A stretch of DNA of 64,000 bases. It comes from Flavobacteriales bacterium (GTDB taxonomy: Bacteria > Bacteroidota > Bacteroidia > Flavobacteriales > CAJXXR01). The notes under the pieces were generated by a model. It did no database searches. It was not told the DNA's origin and saw only the letters and a list, made by a program, of their open reading frames with translations. This document shows, piece after piece, positions 38,934-61,748 of this stretch. The number at the start of each line of letters is the position of its first letter. Position 1 is the first letter of the stretch. The stretch covers positions 1-64,000 of the forward strand of contig JAOAQX010000019.1 of assembly GCA_025210805.1 (NCBI GenBank), written 5' to 3'. The translations under genes and the position numbers were made by a program.

Positions 38934-41255
38934 TTAGTCAATATGATCCTTTGTAGATATTATGTGATTGTTGTAGAAAAGACTAGATGCATTCATTTGG
39001 TAAACATCAACTCCCTTTTCTTTAACCAAGAGATCATCGATATGTAAACTTGCTTTTGAGTTTTCTTTTCCTTTTGATACAATATAAATTCTATTTTGAG
39101 GATTTCTAACTTCAAAATCTACTTCCATTAAAGACCAGTTTTTGTGGAATACTTCGGCCTCCACTGGAAAAAAAGTGCTAGAATACCATTGATTATTTTT
39201 TTCATCATATTCCTCTATAATTAATCGGAACCATTTATTTAAGGCATCAGGTTCTCCATGATACATCCAAAGGCTTAAATTGTATTTTTGATGCTTTTTA
39301 AATGTATTTGGAAGGAATTCAGCAAATGTATTTTTTCCTTTTTTACAAGATGCAAAAGCACCATTTCCTCTAAAGGTTGTATCTGATTTTAAGTTTTCAA
39401 AACTGTTATAAAACAAAAATGAATTTGAATCGGATAATAAAAATTGACCTTGATTTTTTAGTGATGACAAATTTTTATTAAAAGTATTAACAACAGTTGA
39501 TTTGTCATCTTTAAATAAAATATCAGGGCTAATTTCCAGTAGGTCAAAATCCTGGTTGCTTTGGAGTAATTGCGCTTTTTCTATAAGGATATTTTCATAT
39601 TTTGTGTATAAACCTTTAGACTTGAGAATTAGGAAAGGCTTGGAATCTTTTAACTCTTTTTGAATAGGTTTCGGATAATAATTGGGAGAAATAATCTGAA
39701 TAATTCTTTTGCTCTCTTCTATTGAAGTTCTCGCTAAATTTGAATTAACCAATGGAATACCTGTGTGATAAGATACAACCATAGATTGTAACATTGGTTT
39801 TGCTTGTCGGGGTCTTGAAAAATTTTCTGAGCCACTGTGATAAAAAGGCAAAGCAATAATCCCTTGATATTTTTCTGGTGAAATTCTTTGTAAAGATTGA
39901 TGGAAGGTATCGCTAAGATGTTTTTTTGCAAAAATATTTTTCGATTTAGAAATGCTTTTAGAGGTTATCTTGTGGTAGTTGTATCCTTCAAAACAGCTAA
40001 TAAATCCGATGATAATTACAAAAATTAATTTAAGACTTTTTTTACCTGATTTTTTTTGCCATGTCATAAAATACACTGCCGAAAAAATTGTAAAGACAAA
40101 ATAAAATGGCCAAACGAACCTTCCTGTGGCTCGAAATTGTTTAATTGCTGGGAAAATATCTAAGAGATCAGGGAATTGTTTAAACGGAATTCCCATCGCA
40201 AAAAGAAGTACAAATACAGACGCAAGTAAAGAAATATTAAAAAATTTGCTGCTAAAGATAGTGGCTAATTTAATTCTTAATTTCTTTTTAAAAATACTCA
40301 GAATACCCATTATTAAGAAGCTTAAAAAGAGTAATGTATTCATCATTCCTAAATAACCTCTTGCCTCCCATTGAAGTCTAATTTTTCCACCTGTAAGTTG
40401 ATCTAAGTAAGGTCTAAAAGGAGCATGAGACGGGAGCAAAATATCATCTAATTCTGCATTATACAAAAAGAAACCCGATGGATTATCGGTTCGCCCGATA
40501 TGTGTGTCAGAAAATCCAAGATGCAAATAAAATAAGATAATAGGTAGAATGACCGACGATAGAAGCCATAAATCTTTATTGCCTTTTTGAAAGAGTTTTT
40601 TTTCAATAATTATTTTAGCACATAAATATGCTAAAATAAAAGAGAGTAAAATCATTCCTAAATATGCATGAATAAACATCCAAAACAGATTACTGATTAA
40701 TAAGAGTAAATAAATACTCTTCCTAGGGTTTTTATAGGATTTTAGAATAAGTAACCATGTGAGCGGAAAAGCAAAACTATAAGAAAGGGCAAAATGCCCA
40801 GTTATTCTAAGTATTTGAGGAGCTAATAAGGTGATTGCCAAAGAAAAAATAATACTAAGCCAAGGGTCTTGTTTTAATTCCCTTAAAATTTTATAGACGA
40901 CTAATAGTGTAAAAAAAATAGAAAGGATTAAAATAACGTTTAGAATTCCTACAGAATAAGTCTGAAAAAATGGGAAATATTCTGCCAAGTTTTTGAAGGA
41001 TCTTGCAAGAAAAGGATGACAATCTGTAAAAAGGTAATTCTCACCATAAGGATAATTCATTCCCTCAAAATTGGTACTACTTTGACCATGTTTGATGTGA
41101 TAAGCATAGGTGAAATAGTTTTTTATTCCATCTCCTTCATGACTGAAAATGTATTCATTTGGGTTCCATAATATTTTTCCATAAAGAATATGGATAAATA
41201 GAAGCCCTAATCCGATAAGGATTACATTTGGAAGTTTATTTTTAAAAAATCTCAT
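38934..41255 (-). CDS. Large GT-C-like polytopic membrane protein with C-terminal lectin-like domain
   Basis: 773 residues. About twelve hydrophobic helices occupy residues 10-430, with a first loop rich in acidic and aromatic residues (HEGDGIKNYFTYAYHIKHG, then NYPYGENYLFTDCHPF) resembling GT-C glycosyltransferases that use polyprenyl-phosphate sugars. Residues about 600-760 look like a beta-sandwich carbohydrate-binding domain (WFRLIIEEYDEKNNQWYSS, ASLHIDDLLVKE). Precise activity is unknown; a role in surface glycan assembly is an inference. Single gene. Confidence 0.6.
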   Translation of the reverse strand: MRFFKNKLPNVILIGLGLLFIHILYGKILWNPNEYIFSHEGDGIKNYFTYAYHIKHGQSSTNFEGMNYPYGENYLFTDCHPFLARSFKNLAEYFPFFQTYSVGILNVILILSIFFTLLVVYKILRELKQDPWLSIIFSLAITLLAPQILRITGHFALSYSFAFPLTWLLILKSYKNPRKSIYLLLLISNLFWMFIHAYLGMILLSFILAYLCAKIIIEKKLFQKGNKDLWLLSSVILPIILFYLHLGFSDTHIGRTDNPSGFFLYNAELDDILLPSHAPFRPYLDQLTGGKIRLQWEARGYLGMMNTLLFLSFLIMGILSIFKKKLRIKLATIFSSKFFNISLLASVFVLLFAMGIPFKQFPDLLDIFPAIKQFRATGRFVWPFYFVFTIFSAVYFMTWQKKSGKKSLKLIFVIIIGFISCFEGYNYHKITSKSISKSKNIFAKKHLSDTFHQSLQRISPEKYQGIIALPFYHSGSENFSRPRQAKPMLQSMVVSYHTGIPLVNSNLARTSIEESKRIIQIISPNYYPKPIQKELKDSKPFLILKSKGLYTKYENILIEKAQLLQSNQDFDLLEISPDILFKDDKSTVVNTFNKNLSSLKNQGQFLLSDSNSFLFYNSFENLKSDTTFRGNGAFASCKKGKNTFAEFLPNTFKKHQKYNLSLWMYHGEPDALNKWFRLIIEEYDEKNNQWYSSTFFPVEAEVFHKNWSLMEVDFEVRNPQNRIYIVSKGKENSKASLHIDDLLVKEKGVDVYQMNASSLFYNNHIISTKDHID

Positions 41256-50185: not shown

Positions 50186-52450
50186 TTATTCTCTATAATC
50201 TAGAACACCATTACCGTTAGCGTCTGGATTAATGTATGTATAAGTTCTTATATTGGTATCTCCTGCCGTAATAGAAGTAGGTGTAAATACCCCCGCTGGG
50301 TATCCAAAACCGTCAATGATATCAATTGCATCATCTAATCCATCGCCATCTTTATCCTGTCCTGTAAGTGTTATGCTGTATTCATCAGTATCAGATGTAC
50401 CATCTCCATCAGAATCAGTTGTTAAGAAGTCAGCAAGCCCTATATTATCTGTATCAGGTGCATTGTCAAGACTTAGACCATTGGGTTCAAATGAATCGTC
50501 AAGTCCATTAGGAAATGAAGAGCCTGGACCAAATTCGTCTTTTCCTGAAGGGATAATCGCATTACCAGGCTGTATTTCAAGGATGTTTGGGACTCCGTCA
50601 TTGTCACTATCCAAATCAAGGTTATCTGCAATCATATCTCCATCAGTATCTCCATTAGTAACCTGAATACCAATATCGTCTATGGCTAAATCATTACCCG
50701 CTATGGCTACAGCGGAGTTATCTAAAACTTCAAGATCTAAGGCATCATATGGACCTGTGTTTACAACAACAGAATATTTTAACCAATCTGTACTGTTTAT
50801 TACTCCAATAACCTGTTCTGATATTGTTTGTTCTGGTACAACATTTTTATTAATTAGCTTAATTCTCACATTAGGTTTTGCATATGATGCGTTATCGATG
50901 ATGTTGGCAATATAAAGCGTTATCTGGAGATTGGTATTTTTGGGAAGTCCTGTAAGCGATCTACCATAAAAAGCATCGGTGGTACCTCCAGTTGCATTTA
51001 CAACTAACATGTAACCATTATTATCAAGAGGAGTGTGATCGACATTCGGTACACCCGCTGGAGAGGCTTCCCAAATAGCATTACTAGCACAACTCATACT
51101 TACTTCAACACCATACTCTCCATCAGCTAGACCTACAGCAGTATTTGCAAAAGAATTATCACCATAGTTAGGAGCTGTTAACTGTTTTCTTTTACAAGTA
51201 CCACTTGGTCCTAGAGTACCCGTTCTATTTGCTGTTGCATCACTACCGAAATCATCTGTCAACTGAAAAGATTTATCTTCGTTGGCATCAAGAATTCCAT
51301 TTGCGTTGTTATCGACTTCTTTTGCATCATCAAGGCCATCTAGATCTCTATCTTCTGGACATGCGTTTAGGGTTGCTCTCCATTCATGCCCATTGTATAG
51401 GAAAATAGAACCTCCATCAATACAGCAGTTAATACAATAAATTAATTGGCCTCCTGTAGGTGAAGGGATATCAAACATTTGAGTTTTCGTTAGTCTTGGT
51501 AATAGAAACGCTTTGTCTGTTGTGTTTAGGTCTAATAAAGAAGACACATGGGGAGAAGATGTTCCAATACCTACTTGATTCATGCTTCCGTTAATAAAAA
51601 GCGTTCCAGTATCGATGTCTATATTATCGGTAACAGTTATATCAACATCAGCAGGAGTTGTTCCATCACCAGTATAGATACTTTCGGATTTGGCTGCTTC
51701 ACCACTTTCTGATATAAGATACCAACTTGGTCTATTGGTTCCAAGATTTATTAAAGCGAATATGGCACTAGAGCTACCAGGTAATACATAGTCTGCTTCC
51801 GATCCAGAAAGGTTTCCTTTTGCTATGGTTCCACGTATTGTAATTTCTGCTGAAGCATCATTCCTAATAATTATAATTTTACCAATATTAGAGACAGTTG
51901 CTATTGAATGAACCGGTGGCTTAAATCTAATAATGGGTGCGTAATTTCCATTAAATGAAGCTAAAAGACTGGTCTCTCTCATGTCGACACATGCTGCACC
52001 TAATGGAACACCGCCGTTTCCAGCGCTTAAATCAGCATCTCCAATGAAAAGGGAATCAATACCTGAAGGTACATTTTTTTGATTGGTTCCAAGGTTAAAC
52101 ATTGGACTTGTTGGTGATGAACTTTCTGGTACAGCATTAGATTGTTGTATCCATTTTAAACCATTCCAAACATAGTATCCTTTTACGATTCTGTTTTCAT
52201 CTACTCCAGTATTTGCCGTATTATATACCATAAGTCCTTCATCTGTTGCTGTCAGAGGAACCCCAGCGTTATTTACTGTTGTGTTGTCGTTGAGACCAGT
52301 TAAAGCTACTTTTGGTGGCATAAACCCTCTGTTTGTAGCACTTAGTTGAAGAATGGACGAGCCTTGAGGCGCTGTTGTTCCGATACCAACCTGAGCATTT
52401 AGAGGTAAAGAAACTAAAGCTATTAAGGCAAGTTTTAATAATTGTATCAT
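50186..52450 (-). CDS. Secreted VGIGT-repeat protein with calcium-binding (TSP type 3-like) repeats
   Basis: 754 residues from MIQLLKLALIALVSLPLNAQ (signal peptide). Two VGIGTTAP-type units (about 20-45 and 290-320) resemble repeats in Bacteroidota surface proteins with tail-fibre-like folds. A central beta domain is followed by Asp-rich repeats such as DRDLDGLDDAKE, DSDNDGVPNILE and DKDGDGLDDAID, likely to bind calcium. The protein ends NPDANGNGVLDYRE with no visible T9SS tail, which is odd for this class. A well-spaced promoter lies 42 bases upstream and a terminator follows. Paralogue of the broken gene at 52.9-54.6 kb. Confidence 0.75.
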   Translation of the reverse strand: MIQLLKLALIALVSLPLNAQVGIGTTAPQGSSILQLSATNRGFMPPKVALTGLNDNTTVNNAGVPLTATDEGLMVYNTANTGVDENRIVKGYYVWNGLKWIQQSNAVPESSSPTSPMFNLGTNQKNVPSGIDSLFIGDADLSAGNGGVPLGAACVDMRETSLLASFNGNYAPIIRFKPPVHSIATVSNIGKIIIIRNDASAEITIRGTIAKGNLSGSEADYVLPGSSSAIFALINLGTNRPSWYLISESGEAAKSESIYTGDGTTPADVDITVTDNIDIDTGTLFINGSMNQVGIGTSSPHVSSLLDLNTTDKAFLLPRLTKTQMFDIPSPTGGQLIYCINCCIDGGSIFLYNGHEWRATLNACPEDRDLDGLDDAKEVDNNANGILDANEDKSFQLTDDFGSDATANRTGTLGPSGTCKRKQLTAPNYGDNSFANTAVGLADGEYGVEVSMSCASNAIWEASPAGVPNVDHTPLDNNGYMLVVNATGGTTDAFYGRSLTGLPKNTNLQITLYIANIIDNASYAKPNVRIKLINKNVVPEQTISEQVIGVINSTDWLKYSVVVNTGPYDALDLEVLDNSAVAIAGNDLAIDDIGIQVTNGDTDGDMIADNLDLDSDNDGVPNILEIQPGNAIIPSGKDEFGPGSSFPNGLDDSFEPNGLSLDNAPDTDNIGLADFLTTDSDGDGTSDTDEYSITLTGQDKDGDGLDDAIDIIDGFGYPAGVFTPTSITAGDTNIRTYTYINPDANGNGVLDYRE

Positions 52451-52491
52451 ATTTAAAGTTTTTTGTAATGATAAAGATTTAATAATCACCA

Positions 52492-52521
52492 CAAATATAA
52501 AAATAAACTGTATTATAACAA
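52492..52521 (-). promoter_or_regulatory. Promoter of the TSP3-repeat gene
   Basis: On the minus strand TTG (52521-52519), 19-base spacer, TATATTTG (52499-52492): a full match to the Bacteroidota promoter consensus. The GTG that would extend the gene lies inside it and is rejected. Confidence 0.75.
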
Positions 52522-59415: not shown

Positions 59416-59522
59416 TTATACCAATTATTTGCTGAAATCACTCACATTCATTACTGGTTTTTTTTAGTAATGCATTGGGATAATACCAATGAGTAAATGA
59501 AACACAAAAAATGGTATTATTT
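59416..59522 (-). repeat. Dispersed intergenic element, copy C
   Basis: Imperfect palindrome of about 105 bases. The right arm on the minus strand reads AAATAATACCA, then TTTGTGTTTCATTTACTCATT and GGTATTATCCC; the left arm on the plus strand opens TATACCAATTATTTGCTG and includes CACTCA. The centre has CATTACT/AGTAATG around a T tract. Its right edge supplies the stop codon of the PNGase F-like gene. Confidence 0.55.
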
Positions 59523-61748
59523 CTGAATTGTAAATTTCTGTGTGAGTAAATCTTTGGCTGTTTCAATACTTAGTGTATAGTGCCCGTTTGGTAATTTACT
59601 TAAATCGATATTGTGTTCAGAAGAAAGTTCAGTAATGGTATTTGAATAAACTTCTTGTCCAAGATTATTGAAAGCTCGAATCGTTGTTTTTCCTTCAATA
59701 TCTAAGTTAGAAAGAAGGAGGTTTCCTTGTGATGGATTTGGGCTAATATCAAAATCATTGTGAAGTGCAATTTCTTCTGTACCAATACTAGGGTCGGTAA
59801 CAAAATAGTAAACTATTTTATTTCCAAAATTGGAATTGAATGTCTTAGAACCCGCACCAGCTTTTTTGAATTTCAACCAACCTGTTCCATATTGAGAATC
59901 TATTTGTTGAAAACCTGTTCTAAGTCCATTTCCTTGGCTATCTTCAAATTCAAATCGGTAACACCCTTGGAGTAATACAAAGGTATCTTTGTAAGTCGTA
60001 TTTGCACTCAAAGCACCATTTTGATGCAAGACAACATTATTATTGGCATCATAAATTTTATAGCTAGACTCGTTAGGAAAGTTATTGGTTCTGAAATTGA
60101 TAATAATTTTTTCTGAAACCTTATCAACTGCTTCAAAATCTGTTGTGAGCTTGTTGTCATAAGTATTTTGATCTGTTCCACCGTTTACTTCGGTAATTTC
60201 TGCATAAAAAGTATTGTTGATACTTTGGCTATAATTAGAGAAATCTAAAGAAGGTAAAGTGATGTCCATGAATTTCATAGAAGAGATATTTCCATTAAAC
60301 ACAAACTCTTTATCTACTTGCCCCGTGATTCCATACTTTATTTTTAAACTCGTAATGGTTTCTTTTCCTCTGTTTTGAACCTTAATTTTAGGTGCTCCAC
60401 AAATCGGGTTAAATCTTTTATGGTCATACTTTTTTGATGGTGCCAAAATATCAGAAACTGCAGCATCTTTCATAGAGTTATATTCTCCATAATTCACTAC
60501 ATATCCAGAAATATTATATGAACCTCCATTTCCTGTATATTCTTGGAAATTGATATCAAAAGTATTAGTATCATTGGATTGAACATTCAAATCAATGTCA
60601 AATTCAGGAACAGCTTCTCCAGGACACCAGTTTGCACGGTCATACCACCATGTCCCTCCTTGTGGGTAGTGAGCATTGGATCCGCAATCATTTTTCCAGA
60701 TAATATGTTGGGCAACTTGATTTCCGTTTGAGAGAACTTTAAACCATTTGTCACAAAACTCTGCACAGTTTTCTGGGTTATTATTCCCACCAAAACCATG
60801 ACCTGTTGGAATAAAGTTTAGCACAGAATATTTTACATCAGAACCCGCATAGAATTTCTTTTGGTTCATATAGTTTTCAATAGTATGAACTCCATTTTCC
60901 CATTTACCGTAATCATGTCCGCCAGACCAAAAATGATGGATATCCTTGACATCTCTTGGTGGTGTACCTTGAGTGAAATGAAACTTTAAAGTTCCTGTAA
61001 AACCGTCAGACCATCCTTGATAGAATAATTTAATGACTTTGTCTCCTTTTAATAGGGGAGCAAGATCTGTAACTTCAAATTCATAGCGACGACCCCAAGA
61101 TGCTGTTAAACCACCCGCATAAGGTGTGATAATTCTACCTAATTCATACTCTAATTTTACTTCAAAAACTTTATAATAATAATTTAGTTTTTTAATGATT
61201 TGCGTAGCGTTTGAAACAGATACTAAGGTAGAATCAGTAATTTGCCCGTTGGTGTCTACGGTATAGTTATATATATTAGTAGGATATACAAATTGTGTTC
61301 CTGTAGATGTTGTTGGATTAAGTGAATCCGAATAAAGGACTAAATCCATCTGAGCAATAGTATCTATAGACAAAGTATCTAAAACTCCACCATCATTTTC
61401 CACTGTATAGGTATAAACTTGGTCTGGGGTATAGTTAAAAGTGTCAGGAGAATTACCATCTACTTTAAAGTTTGGATGAGATTTTAAAGTGGAATCCATT
61501 TTGCCAGTCGGTTCTTCAAGTAGAATTTTTGTGGTATAATCCCATTGGCTACAACCTCCATCAGGACAACTGAGCACTAGCTCCATCATAATTTTTGAAT
61601 AGGTTGTGTTGTTTGTTGGAAAAGAAGTGGTATCGATATATTTTTTGTACCATTTCATGTGAGTACTGTCATGAGACATCACTACGGTTGTTTGAGCAAA
61701 GGAACTTAAAATCCCGAGCAAGAAAAAAATAGGTAAAAGTTTTTTCAT
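59517..61748 (-). CDS. Secreted peptide-N-glycosidase F-like enzyme with T9SS type A tail
   Basis: 743 residues. Signal peptide 1-19. Residues about 50-390 follow PNGase F: CPDGGCSQWD (61-70, with Asp70 at the position of catalytic Asp60 in the Elizabethkingia enzyme), RIITPYAGG (205-213), GTPPRD (261-266), CAEFC (328-332, Glu330 at the place of Glu206) and RANWCPGEAVP (371-381). A third acidic residue of PNGase F, Glu118, aligns by eye with Gln244. PNGase F cleaves N-glycans from asparagine. Extra beta domains follow, then the type A sorting tail (FDISPNPSQGNLLLS, NGHYTLSIET, QKFTIQK). Probably secreted to deglycosylate external glycoproteins. Confidence 0.82.
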   Translation of the reverse strand: MKKLLPIFFLLGILSSFAQTTVVMSHDSTHMKWYKKYIDTTSFPTNNTTYSKIMMELVLSCPDGGCSQWDYTTKILLEEPTGKMDSTLKSHPNFKVDGNSPDTFNYTPDQVYTYTVENDGGVLDTLSIDTIAQMDLVLYSDSLNPTTSTGTQFVYPTNIYNYTVDTNGQITDSTLVSVSNATQIIKKLNYYYKVFEVKLEYELGRIITPYAGGLTASWGRRYEFEVTDLAPLLKGDKVIKLFYQGWSDGFTGTLKFHFTQGTPPRDVKDIHHFWSGGHDYGKWENGVHTIENYMNQKKFYAGSDVKYSVLNFIPTGHGFGGNNNPENCAEFCDKWFKVLSNGNQVAQHIIWKNDCGSNAHYPQGGTWWYDRANWCPGEAVPEFDIDLNVQSNDTNTFDINFQEYTGNGGSYNISGYVVNYGEYNSMKDAAVSDILAPSKKYDHKRFNPICGAPKIKVQNRGKETITSLKIKYGITGQVDKEFVFNGNISSMKFMDITLPSLDFSNYSQSINNTFYAEITEVNGGTDQNTYDNKLTTDFEAVDKVSEKIIINFRTNNFPNESSYKIYDANNNVVLHQNGALSANTTYKDTFVLLQGCYRFEFEDSQGNGLRTGFQQIDSQYGTGWLKFKKAGAGSKTFNSNFGNKIVYYFVTDPSIGTEEIALHNDFDISPNPSQGNLLLSNLDIEGKTTIRAFNNLGQEVYSNTITELSSEHNIDLSKLPNGHYTLSIETAKDLLTQKFTIQK

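What the first reader, a model, noticed from the sequence alone, without database searches (positions are those of the whole stretch)
59517..61748. T9SS-exported PNGase F-like enzyme with one altered acidic site
Two acidic residues equivalent to Asp60 and Glu206 of PNGase F are present (Asp70, Glu330), but the position matching Glu118 seems to be Gln (Gln244, in a YQGW context). Glu118 has been implicated in activity. The protein is also more than twice the usual length, with inserts at about 75-195 and extra domains before the sorting tail. It could have different glycan preference, for example for core-modified or algal N-glycans.
Basis: partly seen in the sequence, partly recalled or inferred. 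Interest (0 to 1): 0.55.

Follow-up and report, generated by a model that had tools for sequence, protein, structure and literature searches.

The report
Exported protein-deglycosylating enzyme, unusual site
This gene most likely makes a secreted bacterial enzyme that cuts N-linked sugar chains off proteins; its 'altered' residue sits at a position that varies freely throughout its branch of the family, so the protein is an ordinary member of a large, little-studied branch rather than an odd mutant.

Summary
Window 59517-61748 (-) encodes 743 aa: signal peptide, PNGase F-type catalytic core (about 20-423), two beta modules and a T9SS tail. Asp70, Glu330 and Arg371 match Asp60, Glu206 and Arg248 of PNGase F; Gln244 falls on Glu118 in phmmer, MAFFT and HHalign alignments. 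An AlphaFold model of the core (pLDDT 89.9) matches PNGase F at Z 30.0 (280 residues, 2.4 A).

The 'altered site' is not special to this protein. In its T9SS-tailed branch the motif is mostly Y-x-G-W/Y, and x is acidic in only 18 of 106 rows (Ser and Gly commonest), while the Asp60 and Glu206 equivalents stay essentially invariant. Type II PNGases replace Glu118 by Gly and use another Glu; the window branch lacks that Glu too, having mostly Trp or Tyr there. The length and the 115-residue insert are also usual for the branch.

Best reading: an active, surface-exported PNGase with an open side near C3 of the first GlcNAc, so probably tolerant of core alpha1,3-fucose. The genome shows none of five glycosidase families sought, so it may serve protein digestion rather than glycan feeding. 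No assay or residue-level superposition could be run.

The parts
59517..61748 (-). whole gene, 743 aa, PNGase F-like T9SS-exported protein
61692..61748 (-). signal peptide, residues 1-19 (by eye, ends FAQ)
   Evidence: sequence; not tested by a program
60480..61691 (-). catalytic core of two jelly-roll subdomains, about residues 20-423
   Evidence: core model pLDDT 89.9, Z 30.0 to 1pnf, 280 aligned, 2.4 A; PF09113 at 297-416
61188..61493 (-). insert in the N-terminal subdomain, about residues 86-187, of similar length in 31 other rows
   Evidence: 32 rows including the window with 100-125 residues between columns 80 and 200
61539..61541 (-). Asp70, equivalent of PNGase F Asp60
61017..61019 (-). 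Gln244, at the PNGase F Glu118 position
60927..60929 (-). Trp274, at the place of the compensating Glu (Glu419) of type II PNGases
   Evidence: Glu in 17 of 17 type II rows; Trp or Tyr in 76 of 106 rows of the window's branch
60798..60800 (-). His317 (Trp191 in PNGase F; His in all other aligned rows with a letter)
   Evidence: 133 of 133
60759..60761 (-). Glu330, equivalent of PNGase F Glu206
   Evidence: 133 of 133
60636..60638 (-). Arg371, equivalent of PNGase F Arg248 (DRANWCPG motif)
   Evidence: 108 of 108 in the branch
59754..60479 (-). two accessory beta modules, residues about 424-665
   Evidence: model strands; similar stretch in a 583-aa thioredoxin/Omp28-like secreted protein of the same genome (that name is by eye)
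59526..59747 (-). T9SS C-terminal sorting domain, residues 668-741
   Evidence: PF18962 3.8e-11, TIGR04183 5.8e-9; Z 8.9 to the T9SS substrate chain of 8glk

Best explanation
It is an active peptide:N-glycanase of the PNGase F superfamily, exported by the type IX secretion system. Shown by computation: the fold, the conserved Asp70/His317/Glu330/Arg371 set, the sorting tail, and the lack of conservation at residue 244. Inferred: Asp70 and Glu330 hydrolyse the GlcNAc-Asn amide as Asp60/Glu206 do in PNGase F; because neither Glu118 nor the type II Glu419 is present, the side of the pocket next to C3 of the first GlcNAc is more open, so core alpha1,3-fucosylated (plant, invertebrate, possibly algal) N-glycans can be accepted as well as plain ones. 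The genome shows none of GH18, GH20, GH29, GH38 or GH92, so the released glycan is probably not the food; stripping glycans from proteins to expose them to proteases is the likelier use.
For: Fold match Z 30.0 to PNGase F; best row that is not a PNGase 9.8. PF09113 over its cut-off. Invariance of the catalytic set over 135 rows: D70 127 of 128 letters (the one V is in L134, whose ORF is split), H317 133 of 133, E330 133 of 133. Zebrafish Ngly2 loses all activity when the Asp60 or Glu206 equivalent is changed (PMC12753239, passages). Position 244 ranks 123rd of 258 in conservation while D70, H317, E330, R371 and W374 rank 6-23, and treekit counts 21 state changes with D and E merged. Type II enzymes with Gly at the Glu118 site are active (PMC9522356). 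Six superfamily enzymes tested by others, two with T9SS tails, are described as open below the chitobiose, and their listed shared features (aromatic-Asp-aromatic/positive; His plus Glu) fit W69-D70-Y71 and H317/E330 (PMC12381499, results section). SprA present. GH searches negative in a genome given as 99.91% complete.
Against: In PNGase F itself Glu118Gln leaves at most about 0.10% of activity (PMC9102325, passage), and three acids are called essential there (PMC9259526, passage); this protein carries exactly that Gln. No member shown by sequence to be in this branch has been assayed: I could not obtain the sequences of the T9SS-tailed enzymes of PMC12381499. Substrate preference is inferred from residues only. 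One of those six enzymes (PNGaseRz) selects for core alpha1,3-fucose and another (PNGaseCg) showed little activity, so openness does not predict specificity well. Five absent GH families do not exclude others.
Confidence: 0.62

Rival explanations
1. It has the PNGase fold and export signals but little or no catalysis, and works as a surface glycan- or glycopeptide-binding protein.
For: Natural Gln at a site where Gln cuts PNGase F activity to at most about 0.10%; several accessory beta modules; no N-glycan glycosidases of five families in the genome.
Against: Asp60, Glu206 and Arg248 equivalents and His317 are kept almost without exception in the branch, which a mere binder would not need; type II enzymes without Glu118 are active.
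Confidence: 0.12
2. It is an amidase of the same chemistry whose real substrate is not an ordinary eukaryotic N-glycoprotein but another glycosylamide, for example on bacterial or algal surface proteins with unusual cores.
For: The active-site rim differs from both type I and type II; many of the named homologs are uncultured aquatic Bacteroidota as far as their titles tell; the gene stands alone, with no glycan-use genes beside it.
Against: The chitobiose-contacting set (W69, D70, Y71, H317, E330) follows the superfamily pattern in PMC12381499, whose members mostly act on ordinary N-glycans.
Confidence: 0.16
3. It is a plain type I enzyme in which Gln244 simply lowers activity, with unchanged specificity.
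For: Closest solved structure by sequence and fold is PNGase F itself.
Against: The tree puts it in a branch of 107 rows apart from PNGase F and the type I and II rows (SH-aLRT 96, quick tree, PNGase F on a long branch); the site is non-acidic in 88 of 106 branch rows.
Confidence: 0.1

Closest known systems
PNGase F (Elizabethkingia meningoseptica, type I; 1pnf, 1png, 1pgs, 3pms)
   Same: Two-jelly-roll core, Asp60, Glu206, Arg248, Trp120 and Trp251 equivalents; best fold and sequence match.
   Different: Gln for Glu118, Tyr for Arg61, His for Trp191; 115-residue insert, two extra modules and a T9SS tail; 743 versus 314 residues.
Type II PNGases (PNGF-II 4r4x/4r4z, B. massiliensis PNGase 7zgn)
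   Same: Same fold (Z about 26), His at the Trp191 place, no Glu118.
   Different: Type II has Gly at the site, a compensating Glu (17 of 17 rows) and an N-terminal PNGase_F-II_N domain (one row scanned); the window has Gln, Trp and no such domain.
T9SS-tailed PNGases PNGaseDo and PNGaseL and the other four enzymes of PMC12381499
   Same: Described as multi-module (two of six T9SS-tailed) and mostly orphan genes, with a side open to core alpha1,3-fucose; shared residue pattern fits.
Zebrafish acid PNGase Ngly2 (9lwg)
   Same: Same fold (Z 27.1) and catalytic Asp/Glu (PMC12753239).
   Different: Lysosomal, with protease-associated and Tx-like domains and an acidic optimum; the window protein has T9SS export signals instead.

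Membership tests
PNGase F superfamily | Two eight-stranded jelly-roll subdomains like PNGase F | tested here: met
   Core model Z 30.0, 280 residues, 2.4 A to 1pnf; PF09113 4e-19
PNGase F superfamily | Catalytic Asp60 and Glu206 equivalents | tested here: met
   D70 and E330
PNGase F superfamily | Pfam N-terminal domain model PF09112 | tested here: inconclusive
   No PF09112 hit at E up to 1 for the window protein; 5 of 27 members of alignment A1 hit it; the insert interrupts this domain
PNGase F superfamily | Release of N-glycans by hydrolysis of the GlcNAc-Asn bond | not testable with these tools
   needs an assay
Type I PNGase | Acidic residue at the Glu118 place | tested here: not met
   Gln244
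Type II PNGase | Gly at the Glu118 place | tested here: not met
   Gln244; Gly in 17 of 17 type II rows
Type II PNGase | Compensating Glu (Glu419 in PNGF-II) | tested here: not met
   Trp274 at that place; Glu in 17 of 17 type II rows
Type II PNGase | N-terminal bowl-like domain (PF22252) | tested here: not met
   No hit at E up to 1; the core starts right after the signal peptide
T9SS cargo | C-terminal sorting domain | tested here: met
   PF18962 and TIGR04183 over cut-off
T9SS cargo | T9SS machinery in the genome | tested here: met
   SprA, TIGR04189, 2178.7 bits; other components not tested
T9SS cargo | N-terminal signal peptide | not tested
   Read by eye only

The most novel reading that the evidence does not exclude
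The T9SS-tailed branch has a third active-site solution in the PNGase fold: catalysis without the third acid, neither at Glu118 (type I) nor at Glu419 (type II), with an aromatic residue usually in the latter place; the window enzyme is a natural, active 'Glu118Gln' PNGase with an open core side.
Probability: 0.38. Interest if true: 0.45.

Novelty: new member of a known kind. Interest (0 to 1): 0.27.

Why it matters
PNGases are the standard tools for releasing N-glycans, and PNGase F fails on core alpha1,3-fucose. A large Bacteroidota branch that keeps the catalytic pair but mostly drops the third acid is a source of candidate enzymes and a natural test of what Glu118 does. It also suggests that some Bacteroidota without the usual N-glycan glycosidases still deglycosylate proteins outside the cell.

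Tried and rejected
First genome-contig scan with the single protein found nothing; the profile scan then kept the best 80 of 557 relatives, so counts come from a sample biased to the window's branch. Conserved gene neighbourhood: of the 81 loci examined (80 named plus L145), only L070 and L145, which are the same contig of the same-family genome G001, keep the dihydrolipoamide dehydrogenase neighbour, so no functional partner was found; many of those loci have short flanks. Compensating acid: I looked for acids kept in the branch but absent from PNGase F; Asp85 (90 of 91) is the best candidate, but nothing places it in the pocket. An acid anywhere in the eight residues before Tyr280 was found in 22 branch rows, which must include the window because of its Asp279; 68 rows have neither that nor an acid at 244. 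Residue-level structural superposition could not be done because no coordinates are given. Paper searches on PNGF-II and E118Q gave no primary mutagenesis paper; the E118Q figure is from a review passage, which numbers residues inconsistently. PNGase Bb (9vla, Z 16.6) was not followed further. Carbohydrate-use reading: weakened by five negative glycosidase searches.

Rows dropped before counts: 6 of 140 homolog ORFs as duplicates; 134 plus the window make the 135 rows. The tree used 132 rows including PNGase F, those with 130 or more filled columns. The branch of 111 rows was set as all rows except PNGase F and 24 named type I, type II and other rows, guided; it includes short fragments, and 5 of its rows have a gap at position 244.

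Full report
What is there. Window 59517-61748 on the minus strand is an open frame of 743 aa starting with ATG. Pfam finds N-glycanase_C at 297-416 (4e-19) and the T9SS sorting domain at 668-741; NCBIfam finds TIGR04183. The best solved relatives by sequence are PNGase F structures (E 2e-19), then B. fragilis PNGase, B. massiliensis PNGase and zebrafish Ngly2 (names of the last two). It is the only PF09113 protein found in its genome of 3.12 Mb, given as 99.91% complete.

Active site. PNGase F pairs, by MAFFT: W69-W59, D70-D60, Y71-R61, Q244-E118, W246-W120, H317-W191, E330-E206, R371-R248, W374-W251. phmmer pairs Q244 with Glu118 of 1pgs, with Asp of 3ks7 and with Gly of 7zgn; HHalign pairs it with the Asp of a type I sequence.

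Fold. The full-length AlphaFold model (27 sequences, mean pLDDT 78.2) matches 1pnf at Z 27.5 over 282 residues. The core alone, residues 18-432, with 68 sequences, reaches pLDDT 89.9 and pTM 0.84 and Z 30.0 over 280 residues at 2.4 A, 28% identity. All ten top entries are PNGase F-type proteins, followed by PNGase Bb at 16.6 and other proteins at 9.8 and less.

How unusual is Gln244? I collected homologs from 60 genomes (the window's own and 59 relatives; 45 of 60 with a match, which includes tail-only matches), from 395 genomes of the phylum by PF09113 (61 with a match) and from named genome contigs (best 80 of 557 relatives). Of 140 ORFs with the catalytic profile, 6 were dropped as duplicates, leaving 134 plus the window. 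In these 135 rows position 244 is Gly 51, Ser 46, Asp 20, Gln 5, Glu 4, Ala, Lys, Tyr and Thr 1 each, gap 5; D70 is Asp in 127 of 128 letters, H317 His in 133 of 133, E330 Glu in 133 of 133, R371 Arg in 129 of 132, W374 Trp in 132 of 132. Within the window's branch (111 rows) position 244 is acidic in 18 of 106, and ranks 123rd of 258 columns in conservation, while D70, H317, E330, R371 and W374 rank within the first 23. On a quick tree of 132 rows built without that column, treekit gives 21 changes with D and E merged. The window and its nearest relative L003 (41% identity, Ser at the site) sit at the base of the branch, unresolved. Hence Gln244 is a normal variant of a free position.

What Glu118 means. 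In PNGase F, Glu118Gln keeps at most about 0.10% and Glu206Gln less than 0.01% of activity (PMC9102325, one passage read). In type II enzymes the residue is Gly, opening a pocket for core alpha1,3-fucose, and another Glu (Glu418 or Glu419, both printed in that paper) is thought to take over (PMC9522356, passages). Type II rows here have that Glu in 17 of 17; the window has Trp274 there, and the branch has Trp or Tyr in 76 of 106 and no Asp or Glu. So the branch mostly lacks both solutions. This is the one feature of some interest. It agrees with PMC12381499 (results section read): six enzymes from diverse parts of the superfamily, two with T9SS tails, broadly keep an aromatic-Asp-aromatic/positive motif and a His plus Glu and are modelled as open near C3 of the first GlcNAc, which the authors link to activity on core alpha1,3-fucosylated substrates. 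I could not test whether any of them lies in the window's branch.

Length and inserts. The insert at about 80-195 occurs with similar length in 32 rows including the window; many others have about 3-35 residues there, and 27 rows, mostly proteins of about 1150 aa, have 480-531 residues in the same place, with a Laminin_G_3 domain in the one scanned. 25 of 27 members of alignment A1 carry the T9SS tail. The modules before the tail resemble those of another secreted protein of the same genome.

Context. Neighbours are a CBS-domain protein, a protein with DUF6815 (ATP-grasp-like by eye) and, divergently, dihydrolipoamide dehydrogenase (the enzyme name is recalled from the pyridine nucleotide-disulphide oxidoreductase match). 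That neighbour is kept in the same-family genome G001. No GH92, GH18, GH20, GH29 or GH38 match was found in the genome, each with positive controls elsewhere. SprA is present. This favours deglycosylation as help for protein digestion; that step is inference.

Verdict. Observation confirmed, interpretation partly supported: an ordinary member of a large and little-tested branch of a known superfamily, with a mildly interesting active-site pattern. Literature searches made; none of their listings showed a paper on this branch as such.

Noticed in passing
L078:8402-11893 and 26 other rows (e.g. L090, L095, L120): PNGase-like proteins, mostly about 1150 aa, carry a 480-531-residue insertion in the same loop, with a concanavalin A-like (Laminin_G_3) domain in the one scanned: a lectin-like module nested inside a catalytic subdomain.
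   Followed up: partly
G001:C4 and G001:C8 (L145, L146): The nearest relative genome has three PNGase-like genes by the window protein search, two of them of the long type near each other, whereas the window genome has one.
   Followed up: no
L143:1891-3642 (-): A 583-aa secreted thioredoxin/Omp28-like protein (by eye) shares the C-terminal modules and tail of the window protein, about 32% identity.
   Followed up: partly
window 50186-52492 (-) and 38934-41255 (-): Two long ORFs (768 and 773 aa) without any Pfam match at E 1e-5.
   Followed up: no
L031, L053, L054: Shorter (441-482 aa) PNGase-like proteins with Asp at the Glu118 place but Phe or Trp instead of Arg248, and a long loop after the YDxW motif; L053 has a T9SS tail.
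   Followed up: no
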